Shown in pieces: positions 52,233-59,528 of a stretch of DNA of 64,000 nucleotides. The stretch's first letter is position 1. Each line of letters starts with the position of its first letter. A program made the position numbers and the translations under genes. The notes beneath the pieces are model-generated. The model saw nothing but the letters and a program-made list of their open reading frames with translations. It had not been told where the DNA came from and ran no database searches. The stretch is from Fluviicola sp. XM-24bin1 (GTDB lineage Bacteria > Bacteroidota > Bacteroidia > Flavobacteriales_D > Crocinitomicaceae): positions 62,001-126,000 of the forward strand of contig QCWI01000005.1 of the NCBI GenBank assembly GCA_003149635.1. Direction: 5' to 3'.

Positions 52233-52398
52233 ACGTCTCTTCTAAAATTCATTTTATACGCTAACAAAACTACAATTTTTTGAATTCTATGAAAGACCAG
52301 TGAATATATTTTTTCAACCGTTCAATCAATGAAAACTTTTTCCCCGCATGGGAAGCATTCTTTCAATTCTTAATACCTTTAGTAGTTCACCGTTTTTC

Positions 52399-53817
52399 AT
52401 GGAAAAATCTCCCTTTCAAAAGTTACTTATTGAGAAGTTCGGATTGACTCCCACAGAGCATCAATCGGAGCTTTTTCAGGCGTTGGAGGATTTTGTAAAG
52501 TACCGAGACCGCAAAAGTGCCTTCGTGCTTACAGGATATGCAGGTACGGGTAAGACGTCCGTTTTAGGAGCATTTGTGAAAGCGTTGAAGAGTGTCAAAG
52601 TGCCAGTGAAGTTGTTAGCGCCGACGGGTCGGGCCGCGAAAGTCTTTGGAGGAAAGTCCAGCGCGGATGCCTTTACCATCCACAAGCAGATTTATCGAAG
52701 AAAGTCGAAAACGGATTTCGGATCGCCCTTGAGTTTGCAGCCCAATTTATCGAAACACACTGTTTTTATTGTAGATGAGGCGTCCATGATAGGTGATTAT
52801 ACCTTGCAAAGCGACGGTTCTGTGAATGCGCGTAATTTGCTAGAAGATCTCTTTGAATACGTTTATTCAGGAGTTGGATGCAAACTTATTCTGATGGGAG
52901 ATGAAGGACAGTTACCGCCCGTTGGAAGCGATCATTCGCCCGCTTTGAGTCTGAAATACTTGGAACATCACTTCCCGGAATTGCAGATTTTCAATTTTCG
53001 ATTGACGGAGGTGCTCCGACAGGCTGAAGATTCAGAGGTGTTGAAGAATGCAACGCTTTTGAGAAATACGGAATGGGTGGATTATCCAAAGTTTGATTTA
53101 GTTCCGGGAGGCGATTTAATTCGAATCAATGGAATGGAATTGCAAGATGCACTAGATAGCGCCATTCATGCGGATGGGGCAGAGGAGTGCATCGTTGTGA
53201 CACGATCCAACAAACGAGCGAATAATTACAATCTTCAGATTCGCGGAAGAATCTTGTGGTACGAGGAGCAATTAAGCGGCGGCGATTATCTAATGGTAGT
53301 GAAGAACAACTACTATTGGATGGGGGAAGATTCCCGCATGGGATTCATTGCGAACGGTGAAATTTTTCGAATTCGCAGAATACTTGGTTACGAGGAATTG
53401 TACGGATTCAACTTCGTTCGGGTGATGGCTAATTTCGTCGACTATGAGCAAGAAGGCGATGTAGAATTGATTTTGCACACAGAAACCTTGCTAACCGAAG
53501 GCCCATCACTACCGCGTGATCGAATGAAGGAACTTTTTTACGCTGTTGAGCAAGATTACGTGCACATCAAAGTCAAAAAGGATCGTTACGAAGCAATTTT
53601 GAAAGATCTCTACTTCAATGCGCTTCAAGTGAAATATGCCTATGCCGTAACGTGCCACAAATCTCAAGGTGGACAGTGGAAGCATGTCTTCATTGATCAG
53701 GGTTTTCTCAATGAAGACATCCTCGGACCAGACTATTATCGGTGGTTATATACGGCACTCACACGTACAACCGACAAGGCATATCTCGTGAATTTCAACG
53801 ATGCATTTTTCGAATAA
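52399..53817 (+). CDS. RecD/Pif1-like ATP-dependent DNA helicase
   Basis: A 472-residue SF1B helicase. The ATG at 52399 gives MEKSPFQKLLIEKFGLTPTEHQ; a start at 52348 adds 17 residues. Walker A GYAGTGKTS lies near residue 46, and Walker B VFIVDEASMIGD near 122. Motif III MGDEGQLPPVG, and the C-terminal VTCHKSQGGQW and RWLYTALTRTTDKAYLV complete the UvrD_C_2 pattern. It is shorter than RecD2. The protein probably acts in DNA repair or recombination. It is convergent with the broken PorP gene. Confidence 0.88.
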   Translation: MEKSPFQKLLIEKFGLTPTEHQSELFQALEDFVKYRDRKSAFVLTGYAGTGKTSVLGAFVKALKSVKVPVKLLAPTGRAAKVFGGKSSADAFTIHKQIYRRKSKTDFGSPLSLQPNLSKHTVFIVDEASMIGDYTLQSDGSVNARNLLEDLFEYVYSGVGCKLILMGDEGQLPPVGSDHSPALSLKYLEHHFPELQIFNFRLTEVLRQAEDSEVLKNATLLRNTEWVDYPKFDLVPGGDLIRINGMELQDALDSAIHADGAEECIVVTRSNKRANNYNLQIRGRILWYEEQLSGGDYLMVVKNNYYWMGEDSRMGFIANGEIFRIRRILGYEELYGFNFVRVMANFVDYEQEGDVELILHTETLLTEGPSLPRDRMKELFYAVEQDYVHIKVKKDRYEAILKDLYFNALQVKYAYAVTCHKSQGGQWKHVFIDQGFLNEDILGPDYYRWLYTALTRTTDKAYLVNFNDAFFE

Positions 53818-53828
53818 CTACATCACAA

Positions 53829-54845
53829 TTAATACCTAGAGCTAAGTAGGAACGAAGGAATCATGTACTGCAGTTGAATTTCAAATGCTCCTCTGGACTG
53901 ATTGTTTTGCTTCAATGCTGAGGTTGTGACATCATACGCTAAGCCCAAATTCCAATTAGACATTTGCATGGCAACGTTGAAAATCATTGCATCTCCATTT
54001 CGAACAAAGAGTCCAGCCCCGAGACGGTAGGTACGCACCTTATCGAAAGAACTCGTTGTTTTGGCTGATTCTTTCAAGCGCATGAATCCCATGACACCTA
54101 TGTTGAAAGATTGGAATTCTCGTTGCTTTTGAAACAAAAACATGGGCTGAATCATGTACTTCTGTTTAGCGAAATAAAGTGAGGAGCTTCCGTGCAAGGC
54201 TAGCCTTATGGGCAATTTTGCCGATCCATCCACTAAGAATGAAACATCGGGACGTCCCAAATGATGCGTCACCATTCCGAATTGCAGCAGCTTCTGACCT
54301 TCGTGCTTCCCCGCAAGGGAGTACACAATTCCAGTTCCGACAGCAAAGGCAGTTCTGTTCAGTGTGCTAAATTGCTCACCTGTAGGAAGGTCGGGATCGT
54401 AGAACAAACCGTTGTGCTGATTTTCCCAACTTCCTGAATTTCGACCGAATCGTTGTCCGTAATATCCGAAACTCATGGCAGTACTAATTTGTCCGCCCTT
54501 GTGAATTGGAAGGTGATATGCAGCAATTCCCGAAACTGTAGTTACATCGAATTGATCGTTTAATTGCTCGTCGTATAAGTTCAATCCAATAGACATATAA
54601 CCTTCTCGCGCCTTTCGCCCGGGGAATACATTCGTCCCAACCGATTCAGAAATTGCGTTATAAGGAGATCCTAGCGCACGCCATTGCGTTCAATAAGAAG
54701 TTGTGATCTCCAATTCATTGTTCAATGCGCACAACGCTGGATTGTACAATGATGACAAGTAATTCAGGTTCGAACTGTGCATGTCCTGACCGCTCACGAA
54801 ATGACTCGCCGCGATGCATATTATGATGAGAATTCTCTTTTTCAT
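53829..54845 (-). pseudogene. PorP/SprF-like type IX secretion membrane protein, nonsense-mutated
   Basis: A 338-codon frame from ATG (54845) to TAA. It opens with a signal peptide (MKKRILIIICIAASHFVSGQ) and the PorP/SprF N-terminus (NLNYLSSLYNPALCALNNEL). After codon 51 it reads TTSY-stop-TQWRALGSPYNA. The TGA at 54692-54690 probably replaced an Arg codon (CGA), since this family usually has 'YRNQW'. Beyond the stop the frame is intact to the C-terminus PSFLLSSRY, with barrel-like strands. The 255 codons after the stop could restart at 54596. SprF-like proteins serve secretion of neighbouring type-B cargo. It lies 11 bp downstream of such a cargo gene, also broken. Confidence 0.85.
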
Positions 54846-54856
54846 AGTACTTGGTT

Positions 54857-56959
54857 TTAATTCACAACTGAGACAAATCCGGAGAACGTTTCCGTTGTTC
54901 CGTTGTCGTATGTGACGTTAATTACATAGACATATTGGTCGTTTGGAACCACGCTTCCCTGATAGGTTCCATCCCATCCGTTACCTTGATTAAAGCTTTG
55001 GAAGATCATTTGTCCCCATTGATTGTACACTGTCGTTTCAATGCGGTTAATGCACGATCCAATCACACTCCACACATCATTTACACCGTCAACATTCGGA
55101 GAGAACATGGTAGGAATAAATACTTCCAGACATGGAATGAAGATGTCGATCAAAACCGAGGCGGTGTCTGTACATCCATTGTTATCCGTAACTACAACGG
55201 TATAAGTCTCCATCGACATCGGTGTTATTTGAGGATTCGGACAGTTGGTACAGCTCAAATACGCCGGCGGGCTCCATTCTTAGGAATAGGTGCCGTACGT
55301 TGCATTGGTCAAAGCCTGCAGCGTTTCCGTTGTCGCGATTTCAATTAAGGTATCTCCCGGAGATGTCCAAACGCTTAAGTCATTGATCAAGTCAATTTCT
55401 TCTTCAATTGGATACTGACAGCCATTGGTATCGGTAATTACCGCCAAAGAAACTCGACCAAATGAGGTCGCCATCAGAGGATATTCTGGCGATAAATCCG
55501 TCTGAAGGCCCTAGAAGTGTGTCTTGGTAAACAGAATCGGTTACTTCTAAATCTTGAGAAAATGTCACACCGGAGATATACACGGAAGTATCCCCAAAAG
55601 CAATTCCTGTGGCCGCATCGTACATGCTTCCGCCATGATAACTTGACCATTGCAAGACTCCAGATGAATCAAATTTGGCAACAAATCCATCAGTTTCCCC
55701 ATGAGATTTTGCTGAAAGGCACTGTCGGTTGCAATTGCTGTATCCGATTTTGTGAGCCCGGATAAATAGATGTTGAAATCAAAATCCATGGATAGTTTCA
55801 TTCCGACATCCAAGCTGTCGCTGCCGAAATAAGTAGCCCAAGCGAGCTGACCGCTTTCATTAAAACGCGCTACAAATGCGTCGGCGTCACCTCCCAAGGT
55901 ATCCTGATGTCCAAGACTATCCGTGATTCCGATTGGAGAATACGTGGTACCAGTAATGACAATATTGAATGAAGTGTCGATGTGCACATCGTTAGCTACG
56001 TCCAATTCCGGGCCACCGAAGTAGGTACTCCAGATCATTGCTCCTGTATTTGTGTATTTACTCAGGAACGCGTCGCCAATGGAATCAGTAATGGTGTCCT
56101 GATACGCACCGGCTGTGGCGATCGTGTATATAGATTGCGTCATTCCGCAGATGCAAACGTCTCCAAAACGATCCGTGATCACACCTCGAACTTCGGTATT
56201 CAATGAGTCACCAATGTATTTCCCCCAAACGTATTCAGGCACGGGATCAATGATGAATTCTCTTGTGAAAAGATCGGGTGCAAGCGTTGAATAGGAAATG
56301 GTATATCCATTTTCGTCAGCAGATTGTTGGAAGTGAACTGGAAGCGTTTCTCCGTTATCCGCGTAGAAGCTCACGGGAATTACTTCTTTCTACGGACGTA
56401 TTGAGTTTTCCAATTCGAGTTGCCCATCACTAATGCTCATACCATCTGATCCTGCATAGTGCAATTGAATATCACTCAAATGGGCTCCAGGATGAAGCAC
56501 GATGTCGTATTTTACTTGTCCAGATGCTGTTTTCTTAAAAACAAGATCGATGTTGTCGTACATGTTTTCGTAAATCACTTCTTCATAGACATCAGCGATG
56601 CATTTACCCGCACTTCCGGCGATGTAATGCGATGACTGAATCGGGATACGCTGTTGAGGTCGAATTACAAACGATTTATTAGCGCCGATAAACGAAACAT
56701 CAATGCGATGCATGCGGATGGATGATCCTGAATTTTCGTACAAATCGAAGCTGAATCCAGAGGTGCGCAATTGAACATTCATGCCATATGCACCGGCAAA
56801 TAAGAACTTTACCTGATCGTTGGTTTTTCCGTTTTGATCGGTAATCTGACCATGGTTTTCAACATATCCATCGATAAAGTTTAATGCATTGAAATCCTGC
56901 GTAAATCCTGCAAAAGAGGATAGAATTATTCCAGTTAGAATGAGAAGTAGTCTTTTCAT
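54857..56959 (-). pseudogene. Type-B T9SS cargo protein with SBBP repeats, broken
   Basis: The remains of a large secreted protein: signal peptide MKRLLLILTGIILSSFAGFTQ, an N-terminal domain (FIDGYVENHGQITDQNGK), several SBBP beta-propeller repeats (MIWSTYFGGPELDVANDV, LAWATYFGSDSLDVG), Cys-containing extracellular domains and a gliding-motility-associated type-B C-terminal domain (FIPTMFSPNVDGVNDVW to FSGFVSVVN). Four lesions are seen: TAG at 56392-56390, a probable one-base loss near 55700 (after FQQNLMG), a frame change with loss of sequence near 55440, and TAA at about 55277-55279 (TYS-stop-EWSP). It is upstream of the PorP/SprF-like gene. Confidence 0.88.
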
Positions 56960-57242: not shown

Positions 57243-59528
57243 CTACAAGTTAAATTCCGACAGCTTAAATGATGTTGGCCCCACGCTAATGCGCACTTTA
57301 CGCCAAGTTTTGTTGAATCGATCGATAACTTTGGTCGCGTCTTCACGAGAAAGATACATTCCAGCTAGTGTATTGATTTCTTTCTGAAGTGCATTCATGA
57401 TAGTTGCGGTTCGATAGGCCGACAAGATGTCGTTTTTCGAAAGCTTGTATTTGTTCATCGCCGCAAGAATCGTTTCGTTGGAAACGGAAATGTTTGATTT
57501 GACTGGGTCAGTAAAAGAGTTGACTTCCAGTACGATATCGCGATCAATGCGAACCAACACTTCGGACTTACGAAGACGTAAGAAGGTAGAATCCATTTTG
57601 CTCACCGACGGCGTTCCTGGGTAGCGATCTAAGGTTTCAGGTTGGTAGTTCTTTACCGTTTTGGCACCGTTCCATTTTCCAACGCCTTGTCCTCGGGAGA
57701 TGATGGTGAATTCCATCTTTTTCTCCAAAAGACTTTCGAAGAACACGTGAAGAGCTACGGAATCTTCCTGAGTGAATAAACTTTGCAGGAGATCCCACTT
57801 ATCAGAATCGAAAACATCGTTTAGCTCTAGGTTGATGCGAGCATCGTAGTTTGGTTCGGCATCCATAACGCTGGCGTGCATCATTACTTCATCGGCATTC
57901 TTAGAAAGGCTGGATTCAGGAATGGCTAGTAAGCGAACTTCGAAGTCTTCCGAAAGTTCCTTTGCAGGAAATTGAAATTCCTGAGTGTAGAAATCGAAAG
58001 TACTTGAGTCTTCAAAAGTGTACAGTCCATCTTTCTCAGTGAAAGACATCCAGTTTTGTCCGAGTAGCGCTTTGTATTGATCTAGGCGCAATTCCAAGAC
58101 CGCACGACGATCAATGGCTTCTTGTTTCTCAATTTCAAGTTCTGCAATTCTTTTTTTGTAATTGTCGTAGGCTCCTTGCAGTGCGACAATTTGATCCTGC
58201 AATTTCTTTCGTTCTGAGCGCTGAGAATTGGTGGTTGGAGCACCATCGAAAGTCTCAGAACTAGCCTTAATGGCCTTTTTCTTGGATCGTTTTACTTTTC
58301 CGGAAGGTTTACTATCTGTTGTGATTGGCGTATATCCCAAATTGGAATATTCCATTTCCTTCTTTTGTAATTTGATCTCGGTGCTGTTCTTCTTTTTGGT
58401 GTTGTATTCGATCCAGTAATCGTAACCGCGGCGTCCAGAAATTTTATCTTCCAATTTCGCAATGTGATTGAATTCCAAATCATTGATAATAGCTTGGAAT
58501 GTAGTTCCTTCTGCGAAAGAGGAGTCAGGGGAGAGGAAGCGTGTATCGACAGAGCCAAAGAGTAGGTATTGACGTCCATTCTTCTCAATCACTACGGTGG
58601 TTTGTTTCTCGGAGTTATATCCCCAAACATCTACATGAAGATTGGTTAATCGATTGTTTCCAGCCGTTTTAAAATCGTGTATCGCGTATCGTGCAGGTTC
58701 AATTTTCTCTGTGGTTTTTCGCTTGGTTTCGATGGTTTGCAACATCAAATCGTATGGGAACAGTCCAACGGCTTTTGGCAAACCACGGTTCCACATTCCG
58801 CGTTCGTTCTTTTCTCGTTCTTCGAGCAATCCGGAAGTTCCGCTGCCATCTCCAGCTGCCATGAGTACGTTGTCGAATTCCTCAGCTTCTCCTCCGAGGT
58901 GCAAGTAAATTTGTTCCGTTCTGCCTTTGACATATTCGTTTACCGCATGATTCATCGCGCGCAGTAATTCCAATCGTTCTTGCATGTTGAGAAAACGCAT
59001 GGATTCAACCATCGCCACTTTATCATCCAAGGAAAGGCTTGGATTCAATACATTGTAAATCTTAGGATGCGGACGTTGTTGTCCGTCTTTCGGTCGATAT
59101 GCTTCTGATGGCAATTTTTCCTCAAGTAGCGCTTCGAAAGCATCAAATTCGTTCTGGTATTGCTTTAAGTTGTTCGGATTTTTTCTCTTCGCCAATAACA
59201 CCTTGTTCAATTCCCAAACTGCCATTTTATTAGAAGCCTCTGCTAATAATCCTTTCGTTGATTTACTGATTTCCTCTTTGCGAATGATGAGGTATTCTGG
59301 ATTATTAATGATGAGTAGTTCTACGGAATCGTAATTGATTTTCCCATTGGGAAAGGTTACCTCAGGGCCTTGATAGTCAAAATAACGTCCCAGATTGTTA
59401 TTCAGAATAGGACTTTTCTTAACGACATGGAAAAGGTAAGCGCGTTCCTCAGGTGTCAATCCCTCATTCAATTGGGCCTGAGCAGAAAAAGAGAGGAGCA
59501 GAACGATTAACAGGTAGAAATTTCTCAT
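57243..59528 (-). CDS. Large secreted protein of unknown function with central coiled coil
   Basis: A 761-residue secreted or periplasmic protein with signal peptide MRNFYLLIVLLLSFSAQAQ. The N-terminal part is charged and helical. A Lys/Ser-rich linker near residues 400-435 (SGKVKRSKKKAIKASSE) precedes a coiled coil near 440-490 (LQDQIVALQGAYDNYKKRIAELEIEKQEAI in parts). The C-terminal part is mixed and ends without a T9SS domain (KLSEFNL). I recognise no family. It stands alone on its strand, upstream of a broken cargo cluster. Confidence 0.65.
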   Translation of the reverse strand: MRNFYLLIVLLLSFSAQAQLNEGLTPEERAYLFHVVKKSPILNNNLGRYFDYQGPEVTFPNGKINYDSVELLIINNPEYLIIRKEEISKSTKGLLAEASNKMAVWELNKVLLAKRKNPNNLKQYQNEFDAFEALLEEKLPSEAYRPKDGQQRPHPKIYNVLNPSLSLDDKVAMVESMRFLNMQERLELLRAMNHAVNEYVKGRTEQIYLHLGGEAEEFDNVLMAAGDGSGTSGLLEEREKNERGMWNRGLPKAVGLFPYDLMLQTIETKRKTTEKIEPARYAIHDFKTAGNNRLTNLHVDVWGYNSEKQTTVVIEKNGRQYLLFGSVDTRFLSPDSSFAEGTTFQAIINDLEFNHIAKLEDKISGRRGYDYWIEYNTKKKNSTEIKLQKKEMEYSNLGYTPITTDSKPSGKVKRSKKKAIKASSETFDGAPTTNSQRSERKKLQDQIVALQGAYDNYKKRIAELEIEKQEAIDRRAVLELRLDQYKALLGQNWMSFTEKDGLYTFEDSSTFDFYTQEFQFPAKELSEDFEVRLLAIPESSLSKNADEVMMHASVMDAEPNYDARINLELNDVFDSDKWDLLQSLFTQEDSVALHVFFESLLEKKMEFTIISRGQGVGKWNGAKTVKNYQPETLDRYPGTPSVSKMDSTFLRLRKSEVLVRIDRDIVLEVNSFTDPVKSNISVSNETILAAMNKYKLSKNDILSAYRTATIMNALQKEINTLAGMYLSREDATKVIDRFNKTWRKVRISVGPTSFKLSEFNL

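What the first reader, a model, noticed from the sequence alone, without database searches (positions are those of the whole stretch)
53829..56959. A type-B T9SS cargo gene and its adjacent PorP/SprF-like gene have decayed together
Established knowledge: type-B cargo (gliding-motility-associated C-terminal domain) generally needs a SprF-like partner encoded beside it. Here both members of such a pair are broken while the surrounding genes are intact. The PorP/SprF frame has a single TGA (54692-54690), likely CGA to TGA. The cargo gene has TAG (56392-56390), a likely one-base loss near 55700, a deletion-like frame change near 55440 and TAA near 55278. The larger number of lesions in the cargo gene suggests it was lost first and the partner is decaying afterwards. 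This is a natural test of functional coupling.
Basis: partly seen in the sequence, partly recalled or inferred. Interest (0 to 1): 0.7.

Follow-up and report, generated by a model that had tools for sequence, protein, structure and literature searches.

The report
Recently broken secreted-protein and shuttle genes
In this Bacteroidota genome a gene for a large secreted surface protein and the adjacent gene for its export partner are both recently disabled; this is real gene loss of an ordinary kind, it has at least one independent parallel in a related genome, and it does not show which gene broke first.

Summary
On the minus strand lie the wreck of a type-B T9SS cargo gene (56959-54857) and, 11 bases further on, a PorP/SprF-like gene (54845-53829) with one internal TGA. 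Three of 33 other held genomes of the genus carry the orthologous pair with intact frames. Against the intact 1340-residue cargo, the window copy has a TAG, a one-base frame change near 55700, a deletion of about 638 residues (1.9 kb) at 55440, and a TAA.

"Cargo first" is not: four lesions against one is what gene length predicts (P = 0.73). Neither gene shows clear acceleration on trees, so both losses look recent. The pair is a patchy, operon-like unit in different gene neighbourhoods, so its joint loss is unremarkable.

As a test of coupling I looked at other broken SprF genes in relatives. Of four with an adjacent cargo (this one included), two have a broken cargo (window; G029:C114) and two an open cargo frame (G029:C60; G003:C313, near a contig end). 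Beside intact SprF genes, 0 of 42 adjacent cargo genes were seen broken. That fits co-decay, but the sample is small, unmatched, and without reads to rule out assembly error. Interest is modest.

The parts
54857..56959 (-). pseudogene of a type-B T9SS cargo (DUF7948 domain, SBBP beta-propeller blades, CHU_C / TIGR04131 C-terminal domain)
   Evidence: intact orthologues of 1340 and 1362 residues in L036 and L037
56390..56392 (-). in-frame TAG inside the DUF7948 part
55694..55706 (-). one-base frame change between propeller blades
   Evidence: G022 cargo alignment passes from one frame to another at 55700-55694
55438..55441 (-). junction of a deletion of about 638 residues (1.9 kb): the later propeller blades, the Ig-like part and nearly all of the SprB-repeat region
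   Evidence: residues 511-1148 of the G022 cargo are missing here; domains named from the intact cargo
55280..55282 (-). in-frame TAA upstream of the sorting domain
54857..55258 (-). remaining type-B C-terminal sorting domain, open
   Evidence: PF13585 64 bits; TIGR04131 63 bits
53829..54845 (-). pseudogene of the cognate PorP/SprF-like outer-membrane shuttle
54690..54692 (-). in-frame TGA at codon 52, where three intact relatives have arginine

Best explanation
An accessory two-gene unit, a type-B cargo of the type IX secretion system and the SprF-like shuttle encoded directly behind it, has recently lost its function in this lineage. The pair is patchy in the genus and lies in different neighbourhoods in different genomes. 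Once the surface protein was no longer useful, neither gene was kept by selection, and stops, a frame change and a large deletion accumulated in proportion to gene length. The secretion machinery itself and the other SprF genes remain. Shown: the pair, its lesions, intact orthologues, the other intact SprF genes and SprA. Inferred: loss of use as the cause, and recency. Not resolved: which gene broke first.
For: Intact orthologous pairs in 3 of 33 other held genomes of the genus; spacing between cargo and SprF 10-11 bases in all four. Within 18-19 kb around the pair, the window region shares no other gene with the G022 or G020 region, and those two share none with each other. In its genome 14 of 15 PorP/SprF matches have no internal stop and SprA_N lies in an open frame of 2473 residues. 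SprF tree: distance from the clade root to the window tip 0.585 against 0.77, 0.80 and 0.95 for the intact three (summed from the tree); C-terminal domain tip 0.436 (window) against 0.396 (G022). Lesion counts fit gene lengths.
Against: Window SprF differs at 31 of 112 columns conserved in the other three, against 18 of 99, 18 of 99 and 19 of 100 for those three in turn, a mild excess that may reflect relaxed constraint or its outgroup position in the SprF tree (the C-terminal-domain tree instead pairs window with G022). No read evidence. The nearest orthologues are only 39-44% identical, so the ancestral state just before the loss is not seen.
Confidence: 0.8

Rival explanations
1. The cargo was lost first and the shuttle, dedicated to it, is decaying as a consequence.
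For: More lesions, including a large deletion, in the cargo. Type-B cargo and SprF-like shuttles form largely specific pairs in F. johnsoniae (PMC12618676, passages seen). Broken cargo beside broken SprF in 2 of 4 cases against 0 of 42 beside intact SprF.
Against: Lesion numbers fit gene lengths. Branch lengths do not separate the two genes. In G029:C60 and G003:C313 the SprF is broken and the cargo frame is open, the opposite order.
Confidence: 0.25
2. The shuttle was lost first; without its exit partner the cargo became useless or harmful and decayed fast.
For: G029:C60 shows an SprF broken by TAA next to an open 1255-residue cargo, so that order can exist. Secretion of type-B cargo depends on its shuttle (PMC12618676).
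Against: Nothing at this locus dates the TGA before the cargo lesions. Other shuttles may take over: orphan type-B cargos share one shuttle and crosstalk occurs (PMC12618676).
Confidence: 0.25
3. Some or all of the small lesions are sequencing or assembly errors.
For: No reads are held. In the parallel case G029:C114 the SprF frame change lies at a run of seven A, a typical error site. The three carriers of the intact pair are metagenome-assembled by their record titles.
Against: Five lesions of three kinds fall in this 3.1 kb, among them a 1.9 kb deletion; 14 of 15 SprF matches of the genome have no internal stop.
Confidence: 0.1
4. The stops are read through or recoded, and the genes still work.
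For: None found.
Against: TAA, TAG and TGA end 18, 12 and 11 of 42 open frames of at least 200 codons in the window (the remaining one runs off the window). A frame change and a large deletion would remain even with read-through.
Confidence: 0.02

Closest known systems
SprB-SprF and Fjoh_3952-Fjoh_3951 type-B cargo / shuttle pairs of Flavobacterium johnsoniae
   Same: A gene for a protein with a type-B C-terminal domain is followed directly by a porP/sprF-like gene (PMC12618676 and PMC9143113, passages seen); the window pair has the same order and domains.
   Different: The window pair is broken in both genes, and its cargo is a DUF7948 / SBBP propeller protein with SprB repeats in the intact relatives.
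Intact orthologous pairs in G022, G020 and G031 (contigs of the same length are titled Crocinitomicaceae bacterium cluster4_bin.2, Fluviicola sp. NORP3 and Crocinitomicaceae bacterium SZUA-1406)
   Same: Same gene order, spacing of 10-11 bases, SprF 39-44% identical.
   Different: Open frames; cargo of 1340 and 1362 residues in G022 and G020; the G031 contig ends inside the cargo (open for 609 residues).
Second broken pair, G029:C114
   Same: Cargo broken by an in-frame TGA just before its type-B domain; adjacent SprF broken by a frame change.
   Different: Another SprF subfamily, one lesion per gene, and the SprF frame change lies in a run of seven A, so an assembly error is possible.

Membership tests
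type-B T9SS cargo | C-terminal gliding-motility type domain (TIGR04131 / PF13585) | tested here: met
   TIGR04131 63 bits, cut-off 35; PF13585 64 bits, cut-off 27
type-B T9SS cargo | one open frame from signal peptide to C-terminal domain | tested here: not met
   TAG, frame change, deletion of about 638 residues, TAA
type-B T9SS cargo | Sec signal peptide | not tested
   N-terminus looks like one by eye; no predictor was run
PorP/SprF-like shuttle | PF11751 match over nearly the whole length | tested here: met
   89 bits, profile 4-273 of 273, with the stop read as X
PorP/SprF-like shuttle | intact open frame | tested here: not met
   TGA at codon 52
cognate cargo-shuttle pair | shuttle gene directly downstream of the cargo gene on the same strand | tested here: met
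   11 bases apart; 10-11 in the three relatives
cognate cargo-shuttle pair | secretion of the cargo needs this shuttle | not testable with these tools
   needs an experiment

The most novel reading that the evidence does not exclude
Type-B cargo and its SprF shuttle behave as one unit of selection: when either breaks, the other soon follows, so paired decay would be a general genomic signature that finds cognate pairs and dedicated, non-redundant shuttles. The window and G029:C114 would be two independent cases.
Probability: 0.3. Interest if true: 0.45.

Novelty: new member of a known kind. Interest (0 to 1): 0.27.

Why it matters
Broken pairs are natural knock-outs. If paired decay recurs in isolates with good reads, it would support, by evolution rather than by plasmid assays, that most SprF-like shuttles serve a single cargo. 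One pair alone says little, since the two genes sit together and may be lost together for any reason.

Tried and rejected
Order of loss from lesion numbers: rejected, the numbers fit gene lengths. Order of loss from branch lengths: no clear acceleration in either gene, so no order. Replacement by a recent duplicate: not seen; the next best C-terminal-domain match listed in the same genome is 35% identical and the next listed SprF there 27%. Loss of the whole secretion system: rejected, SprA_N is in an open frame and 14 of 15 SprF matches have no internal stop. A closer intact orthologue elsewhere in the order: 399 genomes searched with the four-row SprF profile; after the four orthologues (582-592 bits) the next match has 244.5 bits (the profile is built from those four rows).

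False alarms: two SprF matches flagged with internal stops (G243:C17, G370:C424) have full-length frames; the stops lie after the frame's end. G028:C66 is an SprF tail fused to unrelated sequence, with no cargo beside it, and I left it out of the count. G017:C55 (in-frame TAA) and G015:C3 (a 90-residue remnant) are broken SprF genes with no type-B domain found in the 10.5 and 8.5 kb fetched, so they are not in the 2-of-4 count. G003:C313 is counted as broken with an open cargo frame, but it ends near a contig end and may be an assembly fault; without it, and with only the 34 pairs seen whole as control, the count is 2 of 3 against 0 of 34 (P = 0.0045). A frame break in a fused PorP-like gene in G030:C7 is a different gene type and was left out.

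Limits of the survey: searches cover 38 genomes and 550 matches but their lists are cut; searches list in full the 424 matches of 29 of them. The remaining nine genomes (126 matches) are only partly listed. Partial matches at contig ends, several very short fragments and one sub-threshold match with a stop (G005:C139) were not followed up. The 40 control loci were picked from the top's list, mostly from other genera than this one, not at random; two of them are the false alarms above; 8 of the 36 control cargos run off the contig and are seen only in part.

Paper searches: (SprF, type IX secretion, type B CTD; pseudogene, type IX secretion, gliding motility; sprB, sprF, frameshift) list no title about joint decay of cargo and shuttle; I saw listings only for these, passages of three papers, and no paper in full.

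Full report
Observation. The window is part of a 3.63 Mb genome in 19 contigs, 99.86% complete. On the minus strand a type-B cargo pseudogene runs from 56959 to 54857 and a PorP/SprF-like pseudogene from 54845 to 53829. The flanking frames, 52348-53817 (a helicase by Pfam) and 57243-59528 (761 residues, no Pfam match), are open.

What intact copies look like. Searching 59 related genomes and the own one with the SprF read-through, and the 34 held genomes of the genus with the C-terminal part of the cargo, brings out three genomes of the genus well above the rest: G022, G020, G031 (SprF 45, 41, 38%; C-terminal part 56, 50, 47%). In all three the cargo lies directly upstream of the SprF gene, 10-11 bases apart. 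The intact cargo has 1340 (G022) and 1362 (G020) residues; the G031 contig ends within it. Pfam finds DUF7948, SBBP propeller repeats, an Ig-like domain (below its cut-off), an SprB repeat (above its cut-off in G022 only) and the CHU_C sorting domain. Contigs of exactly these lengths in the named collection are titled Crocinitomicaceae bacterium, Fluviicola sp. and Crocinitomicaceae bacterium, all MAGs, so the window is inferred to be from Crocinitomicaceae.

The lesions. Alignment with the G022 cargo shows an in-frame TAG, a one-base frame change near 55700, loss of residues 511-1148 at 55440, return to the first frame, and an in-frame TAA. The deletion removes nearly half of the coding length.

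Age and order. A fixed rate per base predicts that 80% of lesions fall in the cargo by intact length, or 67% by remaining length; four or more of five has P = 0.73 or 0.48. In the SprF tree the window groups with the three orthologues (support 0.999), and its distance from their common node is shorter than theirs (0.585 against 0.77-0.95). In the tree of the C-terminal domain its tip is 0.436 against 0.396 for G022. Against this, the window SprF differs at 31 of 112 columns conserved in the other three, where each of those differs at 18-19 of about 100, and the two trees disagree on where the window attaches. I conclude that both losses are recent relative to the divergence from these relatives, and that the order is not resolved.

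Context. No gene other than the pair is shared between the 18-19 kb regions around it in the window genome, G022 and G020. The same genome has 15 PorP/SprF matches, of which only this one has an internal stop, and 38 type-B domains over the cut-off, with two more below it. By their coordinates six other SprF genes there lie directly behind a type-B domain; those cargos sit in open frames of 416-1850 residues. Two other type-B cargos of this genome, with no SprF match beside them, look damaged: G000:C7:60616-63582 has an in-frame TAA, and G000:C9:146572-147267 is a short frame with no evident signal peptide. So type-B cargo loss here is not tied to a neighbouring shuttle.

A small natural test. 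PorP/SprF matches were listed in full for 29 genomes of the genus (424 matches) and in part for nine more genomes of genus, family and order. Broken SprF genes with a type-B domain directly upstream: the window; G029:C114, SprF broken by a frame change at a run of seven A and cargo by an in-frame TGA just before its sorting domain; G029:C60, SprF broken by TAA and cargo open over 1255 residues; G003:C313, SprF cut off after about 120 residues near a contig end and cargo open over the 665 residues fetched. So 2 of 4 have a broken cargo. As control, 40 loci from the top's list, all with a full-length SprF frame: 36 have an adjacent type-B domain, 28 of them in a complete open frame of at least 903 codons and 8 in a frame running off the contig, none seen broken; 4 have no adjacent type-B domain. 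With the six intact pairs of the own genome, 0 of 42. Fisher P = 0.006, or 0.0085 against the 34 seen whole. The two groups were chosen differently, two of the four cases come from one 88%-complete genome, and assembly errors could cluster, so this is a hint, not a demonstration.

Known background. In F. johnsoniae secretion of type-B substrates needs cognate SprF-like shuttles, usually encoded directly downstream; three orphan substrates share one orphan shuttle, and crosstalk occurs (PMC12618676, passages). SprF binds SprB and is proposed to anchor it (PMC9143113, passages). The window pair fits this scheme as a broken member.

Verdict. A confirmed, recent, two-gene pseudogene unit of a known kind.

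Noticed in passing
G000:C7:60616-63582 (L060): A second type-B cargo of the same genome carries one in-frame TAA (62947) before its sorting domain; no SprF match adjacent.
   Followed up: partly
G000:C9:146572-147267 (L061): A type-B sorting domain in a short frame without an evident signal peptide, perhaps a 5'-truncated remnant.
   Followed up: partly
G000:C17:20586-20924 (L062): A 112-residue frame with an apparent signal peptide and little more than a weak type-B domain (TIGR04131 20 bits, below cut-off), a very small possible type-B protein.
   Followed up: no
L059, G029:C114:131656-135913: Another type-B cargo / SprF pair with both genes broken.
   Followed up: partly
L058, G028:C66:36366-37070: C-terminal half of an SprF gene fused to unrelated sequence near a contig end, probably a misassembly.
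   Followed up: no
L125, G030:C7:360852-361647: A PorP-like gene of the kind that elsewhere lies in long frames of about 600 residues is split between two frames here.
   Followed up: no
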